A DNA stretch of 64,000 nt from positions 372,001 through 436,000 of the forward strand of contig NZ_CP093397.1 of the NCBI RefSeq assembly GCF_029027585.1. Direction: 5' to 3'. Source of the stretch: Sulfurimonas sp. Its GTDB lineage: Bacteria > Campylobacterota > Campylobacteria > Campylobacterales > Sulfurimonadaceae. Shown here one piece after another: positions 57,549-64,000 of the stretch. A program made the position numbers and the translations under genes. The stretch's first letter is position 1. Every line of letters begins with the position of its first letter. Under the pieces are notes generated by a model, which saw only the letters and a program-made list of their open reading frames with translations, did no database searches and was not told the origin of the DNA.

Positions 57549-57625
57549 GTCAGGGTAGCTCAGCTGGTTAGAGCACTGGTCTCATAAGCCGGGGGTCGGG
57601 GGTTCGAGTCCCCCCTCTGACACCA
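57549..57625 (+). tRNA. tRNA-Met (anticodon CAT, elongator type)
   Basis: Acceptor GTCAGGG/CTCTGAC, anticodon stem CTGGT/GCCGG with loop CTCATAA (CAT), T-arm GGGGGTTCGAGTCCCCC, CCA encoded. The fully paired acceptor top rules against the initiator; tRNA-Ile2 (lysidine-modified CAT) cannot be fully excluded. Its 3' end borders the mobile element and is a natural integration site. Confidence 0.9.
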
Positions 57626-57648
57626 TCTTATTAAGATACTTTACTTTG

Positions 57649-57672: not shown

Positions 57673-57692
57673 TTCCATATTAACCTCAAGTA

Positions 57693-57708
57693 GTAACTAC
57701 ACAATTAC
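57693..57708 (+). repeat. Palindromic box, copy 1 (GTAACTACACAATTAC)
   Basis: Imperfect copy of the 16-base palindrome found perfectly at 57757. The outer arms GTAAC and TTAC are kept. Confidence 0.65.
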
Positions 57709-57756
57709 CCCATAACTTTTTAACCAACCAATCATTCATTAATCAATTACCACCTA

Positions 57757-57772
57757 GTAACTGTACAGTTAC
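57757..57772 (+). repeat. Palindromic box, copy 2 (perfect, GTAACTGTACAGTTAC)
   Basis: A perfect 16-base palindrome. An extra half site, AATTACC, lies at 57745-57751 just before it. Confidence 0.75.
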
Positions 57773-57800
57773 CTATTGTATATGCATTAATTACTCACTA

Positions 57801-57816
57801 GTAACTGTACAATTAC
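57801..57816 (+). repeat. Palindromic box, copy 3 (GTAACTGTACAATTAC)
   Basis: One base from a perfect palindrome, preceded by CTA as in copy 2. A further half site, CTAGTAAC, lies at 57876-57883. Likely binding sites for a dimeric regulator or initiator of the element. Confidence 0.7.
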
Positions 57817-57883
57817 CTTATGCCTCTTTAAAGTGCCTTATAGAGGAGTACAAATTAGAATTTTTGCTACATATACTAGTAAC

Positions 57884-58358: not shown

Positions 58359-58403
58359 CTTCAAAACTAACAAAAGCACTAAAATATACGAGATTTTTCT
58401 TTT

Positions 58404-58464
58404 CAACCTAAATAAATTAATTTATTTAGGTTGGCAGGATAGGGAATTTGTATGACAAATTCCC
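58404..58464 (-). other. oriT: Candidate oriT with IncP/RP4-type nic core
   Basis: Read on the minus strand: a perfect 10-bp hairpin with 3-base loop (58464-58442; arms GGGAATTTGT and ACAAATTCCC), then CCTATCCTGCC (58443-58433), then a perfect 30-base palindrome (58433-58404; arm CAACCTAAATAAATT). TATCCTG|C is the nic core of RP4 and other MOBP oriTs, with an inverted repeat next to it as here. The predicted cut lies between 58435 and 58434 on the minus strand. A MOBP-type relaxase is encoded in the same element. Confidence 0.75.
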
Positions 58465-58498
58465 AAAACCGACTATGATTTTTCTTTCTTTTTAGATA

Positions 58499-58524
58499 CA
58501 ATTAGTTGCTAATTAAACTAATTG
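58499..58524 (+). promoter_or_regulatory. Inverted repeat, probable operator of the RHH gene
   Basis: CAATTAGTT (58499-58507) and AACTAATTG (58516-58524) are perfect inverted repeats around 8 bases, 4 bases before the gene's first possible start. The left arm overlaps a GATACAAT -10-like box. Auto-repression by the encoded ribbon-helix-helix protein is plausible. Confidence 0.6.
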
Positions 58525-58528
58525 TTAG

Positions 58529-59284
58529 GTGCTTATATTGACAAAGAATAAGAGAGTATTAACTAGAATTGATGATAGACTTTTGCTTAAAATCAACCGT
58601 AAACTGGCGTTAAAAAAATTTAGCAGTTACGACATAAGTAAATTAATAAGAGCATCTATTGAAAGCTTTTTCAATAAGGATTTATTTGCTTATGTGCAGA
58701 ATACAAATATAATTATTAAAGTTTTAAATGAACTTAAACTTGATTTATCTGGAGTTATCTCAAACTTCAGTCAAATACAAGAACATATAAAAAAGTTTAC
58801 AAGTTCTAGTGAGCTAGTCAATTCTTTAGAACTTATGCAGCAAGATGTTAAAAAGCAAATATTAGATATTAATTTTCTTGTCCAATTATTAAAACCATTT
58901 AATGATCTAAATATAAAAGACAATATAATAACTCTAAGAATTGAGTCTAATGTCTACTCCCAAATTATGTCTAAAATTGAGGAGTACTCATTTATAAATT
59001 TTGATAGAAGTAAATTCATAAGAACCTCGTTGAAATACTATTTAGATAAAAAATATTTTGTTATATCAGATAAAAAAATAGTTTTGGCTCGTGAGCTTAT
59101 GAAAAATGCTTCTCAAGTAGATGCTGCATCTAATGACATTAATCAAATAGCATTTTATTTTAATGTTGAAAAAGAAGTGGATATAAATGATATTAAGGGT
59201 GTTTTGAATAGTTTTGATAAGTATCTAGGAGATACTTACCTTTTAGTTAATAAACTTCATCAAGAGAGTTTAAAAGAGTTTTAG
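58529..59284 (+). CDS. Relaxosome accessory-like protein with two RHH/MobC-type units
   Basis: 251 residues from GTG 58529; TTG 58538 is an alternative with a better ribosome site (TTAGGTG). The chain appears duplicated. Residues 9-48 (RVLTRIDDRLLLKINRKL... ISKLIRASIESFF) and 132-172 (ITLRIESNVYSQIMSKI... SKFIRTSLKYYL) each have the strand-helix-helix pattern of ribbon-helix-helix DNA-binding domains. Each is followed by a helical MobC-like stretch (LSGVISNFSQIQEHIKK; SNDINQIAFYFN). Being next to the oriT-like site, it probably binds there and assists the relaxase. Only gene of the element on the plus strand. Confidence 0.7.
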   Translation: MLILTKNKRVLTRIDDRLLLKINRKLALKKFSSYDISKLIRASIESFFNKDLFAYVQNTNIIIKVLNELKLDLSGVISNFSQIQEHIKKFTSSSELVNSLELMQQDVKKQILDINFLVQLLKPFNDLNIKDNIITLRIESNVYSQIMSKIEEYSFINFDRSKFIRTSLKYYLDKKYFVISDKKIVLARELMKNASQVDAASNDINQIAFYFNVEKEVDINDIKGVLNSFDKYLGDTYLLVNKLHQESLKEF

Positions 59285-59748: not shown

Positions 59749-59988
59749 TTAATTTTTTATTATTAGTCCTTCTTCTTTAGCAAGTTTTAGCCCAGCTCTT
59801 TTCAAAAAACCGCTCAAACTTTCTCCAGATGCTTCCGCAGCATCTTGTAATTCTACAGATATGCCATAGACCATTCGATCTATCTTTTTTTTTATCGGAA
59901 CTGTTAAGATAGTCTCTTTTAAGTGACTATCTTTTTTCAAGTTTTTTACTTTAACAGTTTTCAATAAATCAAATTTATTTTTTGCCAC
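59749..59988 (-). CDS. Small ParA partner (partition/DNA-binding protein)
   Basis: 79 residues, starting at GTG one base after the parA stop, hence co-translated. A basic N terminus (KFDLLKTVKVKNLKKDSHLKETILTVPIKKK) is followed by two helices (VELQDAAEASGESLSGFLKRAGLKLAKEEG), the layout of small ribbon-helix-helix ParB-like partners of plasmid ParA proteins. DNA-binding and centromere recognition are inferred from context. Confidence 0.68.
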   Translation of the reverse strand: MAKNKFDLLKTVKVKNLKKDSHLKETILTVPIKKKIDRMVYGISVELQDAAEASGESLSGFLKRAGLKLAKEEGLIIKN

Positions 59989-59989
59989 A

Positions 59990-60643
59990 TTATGCCTTTT
60001 CTATAATTTCTTGAACTAAAGATTGAATCTCTTTAGATGGTTTACTAAAAAATTGTTTTTCTACAACATTTTGCCCAGTTGATAATAATCTTTTATGCAA
60101 CTTGTTATCTCTAACTACAGTATCAAATACATTGATTATAGTATTTTCTACATATTTTGTTAAGTCTCTATGTGTTGATTTATCAGCGTGATGAATACGA
60201 TTAATTAAAACAAATGCTTTGGAATCTGTTCTAATCTCAAAAGTTTTTTCTATTAGATGAGCAAATTCTCCGAAACCATCTATATCATTATCACTATCTG
60301 ACATGGGTATAATAATCATATCAGCAAGTAGTAGTATAACTCTAGAAAGATCACTGTCGTAACCACCTGAATCGATTATCGTAAGACCTTTATCATTACG
60401 CAAGAACTGCTCTAGTTCTTTTTCATCCTTAATTACAACACTATTCATAGGTTCTTCTCTATTATTGTTATACTTTGTCATTTGCTGTAAATTGTCAAAG
60501 TCTATGAATGTAGTTGTAAATTTTTTAGATAACTCAGTAGAAACATTCATACAAGTTGTACTTTTTCCACTACCCCCTTTTTGATGAGCGAAGAAAATTA
60601 CATAAGGTAACTTACTTAATAACTTCTCAAGTAGTTTATTCAT
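59990..60643 (-). CDS. parA: ParA-family partition ATPase
   Basis: 217 residues, the short ParA type without N-terminal DNA-binding domain. Deviant Walker A HQKGGSGKSTTCMN; Walker A' region FIDFDNLQQ; Walker B LTIIDSGGYDSDLS; later PMSDSDNDIDG. With the small partner gene downstream and the inverted repeats upstream it makes a complete-looking partition cassette. AAAGGAT precedes the ATG. Confidence 0.9.
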   Translation of the reverse strand: MNKLLEKLLSKLPYVIFFAHQKGGSGKSTTCMNVSTELSKKFTTTFIDFDNLQQMTKYNNNREEPMNSVVIKDEKELEQFLRNDKGLTIIDSGGYDSDLSRVILLLADMIIIPMSDSDNDIDGFGEFAHLIEKTFEIRTDSKAFVLINRIHHADKSTHRDLTKYVENTIINVFDTVVRDNKLHKRLLSTGQNVVEKQFFSKPSKEIQSLVQEIIEKA

Positions 60644-60704
60644 AGATATCCTTTAATACTTATATTAAAATGATAGTATAATTAACTTTAAATAGATATT
60701 AAAC

Positions 60705-60756
60705 CAATATTGTATAAATATCTAAACAATGCTATATAAATATTTATACAATATTG
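60705..60756. promoter_or_regulatory. 17-bp perfect inverted repeats upstream of parA (parS/operator candidate)
   Basis: CAATATTGTATAAATAT at 60705-60721 is the exact reverse complement of 60740-60756. The 18 bases between contain a related direct copy (CAATGCTATATAAATAT, 60727-60743). It lies between the relaxase stop and the parA start, 62-113 bases from the parA ATG, where small ParA systems carry their centromere and autoregulatory site. Confidence 0.65.
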
Positions 60757-60761
60757 ATTTT

Positions 60762-63700
60762 TTATCTTTCCATATCTCTTTGTTTTAGGTTTTTTACTTG
60801 TTCTTTATGTAACTTAGTAATAGTTCGTTCTTGCTTCCAAGTAGGGTTTAATTTATTAAAGTCTTTTAATAGTTGTGATGATTTATCCAATAGTTCTAAT
60901 TTAGTTTCTTTATCAATCTTTGGAGTTTCCAACTGCTTGTTTATTAGTTTAAAATGCTCTATCCCTCTATCTAGCATCTCATTTTTAATACTTGGTACAA
61001 CATTTGTTATTCGTTCGCTATATCTGTATTTAGCTAACTCATCATATAAACCTAATTTATACTCTAGTTTAGATTTATTATCTAAATCACTTTTATCTAT
61101 TGTTTCTATATATTGTTTTACTGCATCATTAGTTTTATTAGCTTTAGAAAAGAAATCATTTAAATTTTCTTCTAAACACTTCTTTTCGACTTTGTAATTT
61201 TTTGGCATCTCTTCTAATACTCTCTTGATATCTTCAATTTGGTTTACATTTCTTTTGAGTTCACTGGAGAGTGTTTTAGAAGCTTTAAATATCATGTCTT
61301 TATAATCATGTACCTTTTGCTCATTTAGTGATTTATCGAGCGTTACGATGAGTTTGTTTATAAACTCTTTTTCTTTATTAACATATTGCACTTTTAGTTT
61401 GTCATACTTTGTAGGATCAATCGGCTCTAGTTGCTCTTTAGTTCCTGTTGGTATTGTCACTAGCGGAGTTAAATCAGTCTCAAGCTCTTTTGCAATTTCT
61501 TTAGGCTTAATGAATTCTTGTTCTTTCTTAGGTGGATATTTATATTTATCATTTTCAACAAAATCTTTTAAAAGATATGTTTTCTGTTCAAGTTCATTTT
61601 CTTTATTAATATGTGATGCTGCTAACTCTAAATCATTAGCAAACATATCAATATGCTCTTCATAATAGCCATCTAAAATCTTTATATCAACCTCACCAAG
61701 ATTTGAATTTTCTATAACTTCTCTAGCCGATTTGAACTCTCCATATTTTAAGTGTTCTTTTACTGATTCTATATTTTTTTGATATTCTTCATTTAAAAAG
61801 TATTCTTCTTTAAAATCTTCTAATCCTTTGTTAAACTGGTCTATATTTTTTTGAATAAGCTCTTCAGACATATCGCTTTTTTCGGACATAAATAAAAGGT
61901 ACTCCATAGAAATTTCATTTACATATTCTTCTATAAACTGTTCTTTATAATCATGCACCATAGTTTCTAAAACAAAATCATTTGTTTTATCCCAAACTTC
62001 TGGCGGTGGTTGTTTAGTATTGTTATACCAAATATTTTTTTTAATATTTTGCGGATTTACATTTAATGCTTTTCCAAAATCCTTTATCATTTGGCTTTTG
62101 TCGCTAAGGCTATCTAATTTGTAGGCTTCAACCAGTGTATCAATATCTTTAGCATCTTTTGCATTTGAGATTACAGCAAATAGTTTATAAAAGTCATTTT
62201 TATTCTTTTCCATAGATAAATTTTCAAATTTCATATTTTCTATTTCAGTAAAAACTTCTTTATAGTTTTGATTTTCAATAATCTTATATGCTTCTTTGGA
62301 AAATGAATCTAAATTAATATTTTCATTTATGCTACTAAACTCTTCAATATTATTATTTAGATATTTATGAAAGCTTTCAATATTTAAAATTTGAACTTCA
62401 ATATTTTTTTTATCTAGTTCTAGTGATAATTTCATGTCAATTGGGAGTGATGTTATTTTTGCTTTTTGCAGAGTATATTCAAAACTTTTATTTGTTAATC
62501 TATTCTCTATTATCTTTTGAGTTAAGTTTTGATAAGTTATATCATCAATTAAATCTTTAAATTTTTCAAACTCTTTTAAATTAGCTGGAGTATTTTTTAT
62601 ATGATCAACTTTATAGACTTTGCTAAAAGTCTCAAAATCATTTATATTAAATCCTATATTTTTTATTTCGTTAACAAATACATCTTTGTCATTGTTAATT
62701 TTTTTTATTAGTGTATTTATTTTTTTATCTATAAGTACGATATCTTTGTTTTTAATATTAATTTCATGTAAGACCTTAATAAAATCTGCTTTGACTGTCT
62801 CTTTATATTTATCTCCTTGCAAATCTTTTTTTAGTTGTTTTATTTCTTTTACTAGTTTTGATTTTGGCATCTTTGTTTCTAATGTGTTAAGTCTATATAA
62901 TAAACTATTTATATCTTTTTTTGAATCATCCTTTAAATAGTCATTTAAATAATACAAAGTATCTTTTTTTATCTTACTGCTAAATGTAAGTTTACCTTTT
63001 GTAGTTTCAATATAAAGTTGAGCTTTATTTAGCTCAAGCTTCTTTTGAATAACTAGCTCTTGAGCTTCATTAGTTCTTTTATCTATTTCTTTATAAGCAC
63101 CTGTTTGTTTTAAATACCACTCTATGCTATCTCTTTTTTTTATCAAGCTCGTATAATTCTTTGTTGCCTGTTGCAAATCATACTCTAAGCCATTTAGCTT
63201 GTGGATAATAGCTCTTTTATCTGCATATAAATGACTTATATTATCACTTATAACTTTTTTATCTTTTCTTGAAAGTTTTATATTTTCTTTTTGTTTTATT
63301 AAAATTTCCAAATTTTTGTCTATACTTTTGATAGTTTTAAGTAGTCCATCGATGTTTTCATTTTCAAACTTTTTCATGTTTGATTGAAACCAACTTAAAT
63401 CATTATGTTGTAGATATTTGAGTTGGCTATTAATGCCTAAAATTTTATTAAAATTTATAAAATTCTCGTAATTTAATCCTCTTGAACGAAGTTCACTGGC
63501 AAATGTATCTTTTACCTTATTTATGTCATCTTTTTTTATATCTAATCTCTTATCTTCCATAGCATTGTGTACTCTGACGATAGCATGTACATGGGTATGT
63601 TCTGTATCTCTATGTAAAACAAATATATAGTTATAACCATCTTTTGCAAATTGTTTAGATAAAGTTTGTCGTGCTGCATCTAGAATTTCTTTATCATGAG

Positions 63701-64000
63701 TACCTGGTGTTTCTTTAGTTGATAGTAAAATATGTTCAAAATCCTTACCATTTTTTCTATTTGTAAAAGTTTCTTTCCATTCGTTATATAAGATTAACCT
63801 GTCTTGTTTTGATTCAAGTTTTCTACCATCATCACATTCTAAAACCAAATTTTTATCTAAAAAGTCTGGTCTATCTTGTTCCATCTGTTCTATTTTATCA
63901 AGTGCTTCATCTTCATTAAGTTCGTCTACATCACGAGCTAAATAATCAAGAGCTTTCATCGTTGAGTAGCCTACATTTCTATTTGTTTTACCAGTTGCTT
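60762..64000 (-). CDS. MOBP-type relaxase, 5' end beyond the window
   Basis: The frame has an ATG at 63959 (1065 residues), but it is open to the edge, adding about 13 residues (TGKTNRNVGYST...). Motif I is probably ALDYLARD, with the catalytic Tyr at residue 6 counted from the ATG. Motif III is HRDTEHTHVHAIVR with H116, H121, H123 and H125. This HxDxxHxHxH arrangement is of the VirD2/MOBP class. After about residue 170 come some 900 residues of mostly charged helices and coiled coils with no helicase or primase motif I can see. It should nick the oriT-like site at 58434/58435. Confidence 0.87.
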   Translation of the reverse strand, partial: ATGKTNRNVGYSTMKALDYLARDVDELNEDEALDKIEQMEQDRPDFLDKNLVLECDDGRKLESKQDRLILYNEWKETFTNRKNGKDFEHILLSTKETPGTHDKEILDAARQTLSKQFAKDGYNYIFVLHRDTEHTHVHAIVRVHNAMEDKRLDIKKDDINKVKDTFASELRSRGLNYENFINFNKILGINSQLKYLQHNDLSWFQSNMKKFENENIDGLLKTIKSIDKNLEILIKQKENIKLSRKDKKVISDNISHLYADKRAIIHKLNGLEYDLQQATKNYTSLIKKRDSIEWYLKQTGAYKEIDKRTNEAQELVIQKKLELNKAQLYIETTKGKLTFSSKIKKDTLYYLNDYLKDDSKKDINSLLYRLNTLETKMPKSKLVKEIKQLKKDLQGDKYKETVKADFIKVLHEINIKNKDIVLIDKKINTLIKKINNDKDVFVNEIKNIGFNINDFETFSKVYKVDHIKNTPANLKEFEKFKDLIDDITYQNLTQKIIENRLTNKSFEYTLQKAKITSLPIDMKLSLELDKKNIEVQILNIESFHKYLNNNIEEFSSINENINLDSFSKEAYKIIENQNYKEVFTEIENMKFENLSMEKNKNDFYKLFAVISNAKDAKDIDTLVEAYKLDSLSDKSQMIKDFGKALNVNPQNIKKNIWYNNTKQPPPEVWDKTNDFVLETMVHDYKEQFIEEYVNEISMEYLLFMSEKSDMSEELIQKNIDQFNKGLEDFKEEYFLNEEYQKNIESVKEHLKYGEFKSAREVIENSNLGEVDIKILDGYYEEHIDMFANDLELAASHINKENELEQKTYLLKDFVENDKYKYPPKKEQEFIKPKEIAKELETDLTPLVTIPTGTKEQLEPIDPTKYDKLKVQYVNKEKEFINKLIVTLDKSLNEQKVHDYKDMIFKASKTLSSELKRNVNQIEDIKRVLEEMPKNYKVEKKCLEENLNDFFSKANKTNDAVKQYIETIDKSDLDNKSKLEYKLGLYDELAKYRYSERITNVVPSIKNEMLDRGIEHFKLINKQLETPKIDKETKLELLDKSSQLLKDFNKLNPTWKQERTITKLHKEQVKNLKQRDMER

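What the first reader, a model, noticed from the sequence alone, without database searches (positions are those of the whole stretch)
58404..58464. An RP4-type oriT flanked by perfect inverted repeats
The sequence shows CCTATCCTGCC on the minus strand. TATCCTG|C is the nic core known from RP4 and other MOBP plasmids, and GGCAGGATAGG matches the RP4 region as I remember it. On its 5' side a perfect 10-bp hairpin abuts the core, as in known oriTs; on its 3' side is a perfect 30-base palindrome, which is unusual. A MOBP relaxase and an RHH/MobC-like protein are encoded within 5 kb. The element should be transferable if a mating channel is supplied.
Basis: partly seen in the sequence, partly recalled or inferred. 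Interest (0 to 1): 0.75.

Follow-up and report, generated by a model that had tools for sequence, protein, structure and literature searches.

The report
Transfer origin with an extra palindrome
This is the cutting site from which a 30-kb chromosomal mobile element of a Campylobacterota-type bacterium starts copying itself into another cell; the core is a well-known type, but a long palindrome added right behind the cut has no counterpart in the relatives examined.

Summary
Observation confirmed. On the minus strand a perfect 10-bp hairpin (58464-58442), the nick core TATCCTGC (58441-58434) and a perfect 30-bp palindrome (58433-58404) abut; hairpin plus core never occurs in 60 shuffles. The oriT identification is now comparative: 12 of 18 surveyed loci with related relaxases, plus one IMG/VR contig, carry the same layout, where mobC is annotated 84-143 nt from it on the opposite strand (88 nt here). 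In the ten oriTs sharing the 23-nt hairpin frame, hairpin bases covary. A sister element in another species of the genus has the same oriT. The host element is a ~29.8-kb ICE in tRNA-Met with integrase, relaxase, ParA/VirC1-like ATPase, coupling protein and its own VirB-type channel; VirB11 is frameshifted here, so self-transfer is doubtful. The 3' palindrome is the unusual part: none of 13 comparators has it, and the sister keeps only its outer 10-bp arms. The adjacent 251-aa protein has two ribbon-helix-helix-like repeats and a MobC-like motif but no profile match; I propose it as the palindrome's ligand (untested). Verdict: new variant of a known kind.

The parts
58442..58464 (-). 5' inverted repeat of oriT (10-bp perfect arms, 3-nt loop), abutting the nick core
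   Evidence: covarying hairpin in relatives
58434..58441 (-). nick core TATCCTGC; predicted nic between G58435 and C58434 on the minus strand
   Evidence: invariant in 13 comparators; same 8-mer as RP4 and H. pylori tfs4 (PMC3772185)
58404..58433 (.). perfect 30-bp palindrome on the 3' side of nic (first bases of the transferred strand); absent from the comparators
   Evidence: sister element keeps only the outer 10-bp arms
58498..58525 (.). inverted repeat (10-bp arms, 8-nt loop) just upstream of the accessory gene; candidate autoregulatory operator
   Evidence: I14; unchanged in the sister element; function inferred by analogy with RA3 MobC operator (PMC4175270)
58529..59284 (+). 251-aa accessory protein: internal repeat of two RHH-like units plus a MobC-like motif VDAASNDINQIAFYFN; candidate relaxosome protein
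   Evidence: no Pfam/NCBIfam match; hhalign to MobC not significant
59749..59988 (-). 79-aa small protein, possible RHH (weak TacA1/MobA-like hits only)
59990..60643 (-). ParA/VirC1-like ATPase
   Evidence: (PF07015 VirC1 24.7 bits against cut-off 24; CbiA 1.3e-12)
60762..64000 (-). MOBP-type relaxase (1135 aa; gene continues to window-equivalent 64169); Y76 region MKALDYLARD, HRDTEHTHVH motif
   Evidence: (PF03432 1.4e-10)
57549..57625 (+). tRNA-Met (CAT), integration site of the element; 63-bp identical direct repeat 57580-57642 recurs at window-equivalent 87408-87470
   Evidence: in 9 other species of the genus homology ends just after the tRNA

Best explanation
This is the oriT of a ~29.8-kb integrative and conjugative element (ICE) sitting in tRNA-Met. 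After excision as a circle (inferred), the MOBP relaxase, positioned by the 5' hairpin and the MobC-like accessory protein, nicks the minus strand at TATCCTG|C (58435/58434) and stays bound to the 5' C. The minus strand is then exported, leaving first through the attL side. In the circle the integrase therefore enters early and the tra, relaxase and accessory genes last. The 5' hairpin ends up at the 3' end of the transferred strand and serves re-joining, as in other MOBP systems. The palindrome, which starts right after the core and one nucleotide past nic, is an added accessory site; I think most likely a binding site for a dimeric RHH protein, probably the adjacent tandem-RHH protein. Shown: anatomy, conservation, covariation, gene context, ICE boundaries. 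Inferred: nicking, strand, polarity of transfer, termination role, palindrome function.
For: Same hairpin/core layout in 12 of 18 surveyed relaxase-bearing loci plus an IMG/VR contig, on the strand opposite mobC and 84-143 nt from it where mobC is annotated. Two-sided hairpin covariation at 4 of 10 pairs in the ten oriTs that share the 23-nt frame: 9 cells against 3.8 in shuffles, 0/500. Sister ICE in G366: no difference over 58420-58545, whereas four-fold sites in most ICE genes differ 7-16% and the DNA left of 58393 differs 25%. The pattern TGT-N3-ACA-N7-TATCCTGCC has hits in 3 of 397 genomes of the phylum: the two sister ICEs and one site with 4-bp arms only. ICE parts: tRNA direct repeats, integrase, VirD4, VirB2/4/6/8/9/10. 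Published nicking of the same 8-mer by a Campylobacterota relaxase (H. pylori tfs4, PMC3772185).
Against: No nicking or transfer data. The relaxase domain is only ~30-46% identical to those of the comparator plasmids over short stretches. The accessory protein has no significant profile match to MobC. Six of the 18 surveyed loci gave no site by this search. VirB11 is frameshifted and the relaxase C-terminal region is shorter than in the sister, so the copy may be decaying.
Confidence: 0.88

Rival explanations
1. The 3' palindrome acts as single-stranded DNA: it folds into a hairpin at the leading (5') end of the transferred strand, next to the covalently bound relaxase, protecting that end or aiding re-joining or second-strand start in the recipient.
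For: It begins one nucleotide past nic and folds strongly as ssDNA (-10.4 kcal/mol, z -7.1); the sister still folds 10 pairs (-7.4).
Against: No comparator has such a hairpin 3' of nic, so it is not a general need. The sister's two centre changes weaken the stem without compensation.
Confidence: 0.25
2. The 3' palindrome has no function; it is an AT-rich dyad that arose by chance or local duplication next to a normal oriT.
For: No comparator has it; the inner 10 bp are not symmetric in the sister. Rhizobium plasmids carry TATCCTGCCAACCAAATAATTC without a dyad, so only the proximal arm may be old.
Against: Dyads this long are absent from 60 shuffles. The outer arms and their 10-bp spacing are unchanged in the sister, while DNA just to the left differs 25%.
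Confidence: 0.25
3. The oriT is genuine but this copy of the element is dying: it can at best be mobilised by another conjugative system.
For: One-base frameshift in the VirB11 Walker A motif, intact in the sister; relaxase lacks ~300 residues of its C-terminal part relative to the sister.
Against: The frameshift is a single T and could be a sequencing error; the other tra genes recognised are open.
Confidence: 0.4
4. The site is not an oriT but an operator, terminator or partition site.
For: Palindromes are common operators; a ParA gene lies nearby; a weak promoter-like site overlaps.
Against: No T-run follows either palindrome and no terminator is found. The invariant TATCCTGCC plus covarying hairpin at the mobC-flanking position in relatives is specific to oriT.
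Confidence: 0.03

Closest known systems
oriT of Methylocystis/Rhizobium/Agrobacterium plasmids with LPD7-type MOBP relaxase, mobC and a divergent ParA-like NTPase (e.g. M. rosea pGW6_2 NZ_CP034088.1, R. lusitanum p_3 NZ_CP050305.1)
   Same: Hairpin immediately 5' of TATCCTGCC, ~100 nt upstream of mobC on the opposite strand, related relaxase, ParA/P-loop NTPase in the neighbourhood
   Different: No palindrome on the 3' side of nic; canonical short MobC; relaxase gene directly after mobC; carried on plasmids, not on a Campylobacterota-type ICE
Helicobacter pylori tfs4 ICE oriT (PMC3772185)
   Same: TATCCTGC core, 9-10-bp arms of a hairpin directly 5' of it, chromosomal ICE with VirD2-like relaxase and VirC1-like ATPase
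   Different: Sequence and spacing of the arms; no long palindrome is described 3' of nic (the 30-mer in the paper holds only 9 nt after the core G); VirC1 operon organisation differs
RP4 (IncP) oriT
   Same: 11 identical bases CCTATCCTGCC; inverted repeat directly 5' (PMC3772185)
   Different: RP4 has a 16-bp repeat and, from general knowledge, TraJ, TraK and TraH; none of these genes was found here
RA3 (IncU) mobC-nic/oriT region (PMC4175270)
   Same: RHH accessory protein with an LxxugxNlNQiaxxLn motif encoded next to oriT; palindromic operator between oriT and its gene
   Different: RA3's operator is imperfect and lies on the mobC side of nic; here the long palindrome lies on the other side

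Membership tests
MOBP-type oriT with YATCCTG|Y nick region | nick region (C/T)ATCCTG(C/T) | tested here: met
   TATCCTGC at 58441-58434, minus strand
MOBP-type oriT with YATCCTG|Y nick region | inverted repeat immediately 5' of the nick region, variable in sequence | tested here: met
   10-bp perfect arms, gap 0; hairpin covaries among relatives
MOBP-type oriT with YATCCTG|Y nick region | cognate MOBP-type relaxase (PF03432, HxDxxHxHxH, N-terminal Tyr) in the same element | tested here: met
MOBP-type oriT with YATCCTG|Y nick region | site- and strand-specific nicking, 5' covalent attachment | not testable with these tools
   needs purified relaxase
RP4/IncP subtype of oriT | TraJ/TraK/TraH-type relaxosome genes | tested here: not met
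   no such genes among the ORFs next to the oriT by Pfam and NCBIfam
ICE (integrative and conjugative element) | site-specific integrase and direct repeats at a tRNA gene | tested here: met
   63-bp repeats 29.8 kb apart, tyrosine recombinase at the right end
ICE (integrative and conjugative element) | complete, intact conjugation machinery | tested here: not met
   VirD4, VirB2/4/6/8/9/10 found, but VirB11 is frameshifted; intact in the sister. 'ICE' is therefore used for the element type; this copy may be defective
ICE (integrative and conjugative element) | excision as a circle and self-transfer | not testable with these tools
   needs attP PCR and mating
MobC accessory protein (PF05713) | significant match to the MobC profile | tested here: not met
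   hhalign probability 0.4%
MobC accessory protein (PF05713) | RHH domain followed by the LxxugxNlNQiaxxLn motif of MOBP auxiliary proteins | tested here: inconclusive
   internal RHH-like repeat (score 63, 0/2000 shuffles); motif-like VDAASNDINQIAFYFN by eye; AlphaFold model too poor to judge

The most novel reading that the evidence does not exclude
The palindrome 3' of nic and the tandem-RHH accessory protein form an added second docking module of the relaxosome. The extra RHH unit binds the palindrome on the leading-strand side while the MobC-like half works at the classical hairpin side, so that proteins clamp nic from both sides; a MOBP relaxosome geometry not described in the papers I could search.
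Probability: 0.22. Interest if true: 0.55.

Novelty: new variant of a known kind. Interest (0 to 1): 0.36.

Why it matters
It gives a comparatively validated oriT for an ICE lineage for which I found no description in the searchable papers. It also gives a search signature (TGT-N3-ACA-N7-TATCCTGCC with pairing arms) that reads across to alphaproteobacterial plasmids, and a simple test of whether a palindrome on the leading side of nic can be a relaxosome part.

Tried and rejected
Chance: rejected by shuffles and by conservation. Intrinsic terminator: no T-run, none found. Exact 14-mer TTCCCTATCCTGCC in G005, G044 and G147: no hairpin, chance. IMG/VR core hits other than L067: arms of 3-4 bp, or (L068, 7 bp) inside a primase-like gene, chance. 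IMG/VR hit to core plus palindrome arms (L114): inside an ORF, chance. Two scans of GTDB contigs and two of IMG/VR with relaxase or accessory-protein queries returned nothing. AlphaFold of the 251-aa protein: pLDDT 41, unusable. The idea that the sharp divergence step at 58392/58393 marks oriT-mediated recombination between elements is possible (the accessory gene also has unusually low four-fold divergence, 3% against 7-16%), but strong constraint on oriT explains it as well; left open. I did not fetch C. jejuni plasmid relatives.

Full report
Observation. The minus strand reads GGGAATTTGTCATACAAATTCCC-TATCCTGC-CAACCTAAATAAATTAATTTATTTAGGTTG. The core 8-mer alone is expected about once in 64 kb. 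A (C/T)ATCCTG(C/T) directly preceded by a perfect hairpin of 8 bp or more occurs once in the window and in none of 60 dinucleotide shuffles. A perfect dyad with 15-bp arms likewise occurs once and in none of 60 shuffles. The palindrome is found nowhere else in the genome.

Context. The window is G000:C1:372001-436000 of a 2.6-Mb genome. The element begins at tRNA-Met (57549-57625). A 63-bp identical repeat of the tRNA 3' part recurs 29,828 bp further on, next to a tyrosine recombinase. In nine other species of the genus, homology stops just after the tRNA, which fits an insertion there. Between the ends lie the relaxase (1135 aa, starting beyond the window end), VirD4, VirB11 (frameshifted), VirB10, VirB9, VirB8, VirB6, VirB4 and VirB2, a ParA/VirC1-like ATPase, two small proteins and a 251-aa accessory gene 88 nt from the core.

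Sister element. Another species of the genus (G366) holds the same ICE at the same tRNA, with a 93%-identical relaxase N-terminus and intact VirB11. From 58420 to 58545 the two are identical. The only differences between 58393 and 58545 are two bases in the centre of the palindrome (58414, 58419). To the left, 32 of 129 positions differ. Four-fold degenerate sites in most ICE genes differ by 7-16% (3% in the accessory gene). The oriT block is therefore under strong constraint or recently shared. In the sister the palindrome keeps its outer arms CAACCTAAAT/ATTTAGGTTG at the same spacing but is no longer symmetric inside. Spaced half-sites thus look more important than a perfect dyad.

Relatives. 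tblastn with the relaxase led to alphaproteobacterial plasmids. Of 18 surveyed relaxase loci, 12 show the same structure: a hairpin, 0-5 nt, then TATCCTGCC. Where mobC is annotated beside it, the oriT lies 84-143 nt upstream on the opposite strand; here the distance is 88 nt. A pattern search of IMG/VR for TGT-N3-ACA-N7-TATCCTGCC gave 33 loci. All but two had chance-level arms; one of those two lies in a primase-like gene, and the other (L067, 10-bp arms) sits beside a small gene with an RHH-like start and an NLNQI motif. Across the ten oriTs that share the 23-nt frame, 4 of 10 hairpin pairs change on both sides; the paired percentage, the two-sided cells and the covariation score exceed all 500 shuffles and all slid controls. 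This is the strongest evidence that the hairpin and core are an oriT of a shared type.

The palindrome. None of the 13 comparators has an inverted repeat longer than 5 bp in the 43 bases after nic. As single-stranded DNA it would form a 13-pair hairpin starting one base past nic. It is not a terminator. Precedent for RHH auxiliary proteins binding palindromes beside a MOBP oriT exists: RA3 MobC binds an imperfect palindrome in the mobC promoter, and MobC raises transfer (PMC4175270). The 251-aa protein contains two similar 48-residue RHH-like units (score 63, none of 2000 shuffles as high) and VDAASNDINQIAFYFN, resembling the LxxugxNlNQiaxxLn motif of MOBP auxiliary proteins. Profile comparison with MobC is not significant, so I call it MobC-like, not MobC. 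That an additional RHH unit and an additional palindrome occur in the same lineage suggests, but does not show, that one binds the other.

Working model. Shown: anatomy, conservation, covariation, gene context, element ends. Inferred from established knowledge of MOBP systems: nicking at 58435/58434, relaxase bound to the 5' C, export of the minus strand starting toward tRNA-Met and, in the excised circle, continuing into the integrase end, with the accessory gene entering last. Published work shows a relaxase of an H. pylori ICE cutting the same TATCCTGC and binding a VirC1-like ATPase (PMC3772185); a ParA/VirC1-like gene is present here too.

Caveats. VirB11 has one extra T in its Walker A codons relative to the sister. 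This may be real decay or a sequencing indel. The relaxase lacks about 300 C-terminal-region residues compared with the sister.

Verdict. New variant of a known kind; interest moderate.

Noticed in passing
L007 ~9283 (genome ~438283), window-equivalent ~66283: virB11 has a one-base insertion in its Walker A motif; the sister element's gene is intact. Pseudogene or sequencing error.
   Followed up: yes
window 62353-62355: Relaxase gene lacks 871 bp present in the sister element (1135 against 1436 aa), in the part after the relaxase domain.
   Followed up: partly
window 60694-60772: Large imperfect palindrome between the relaxase stop and the ParA gene, also present in the sister element; candidate terminator, operator or centromere.
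   Followed up: no
window 57680-57820 and window-equivalent 87500-87630: Repeated motif AGTAACTNNACARTTACC near both element ends; likely integrase or excisionase arm sites. The two ends share ~220 bp at 86% identity beyond the 63-bp core.
   Followed up: partly
L008 3683-4690 and 6830-8035: Two copies of what looks like an IS3-type transposase inside the ICE, in a stretch largely absent from the sister element.
   Followed up: no
window 58392/58393: Abrupt step in divergence between the sister ICEs (25% to the left, about 1-3% to the right) at the outer edge of the oriT; could reflect constraint or recombination at oriT.
   Followed up: partly
L096:2501, L098:2468 (Rhizobium/Agrobacterium plasmids): Sequence after the nick core, TATCCTGCCAACCAAATAATTC or similar, resembles the proximal arm of the window palindrome; the distal arm may be the later addition.
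   Followed up: no
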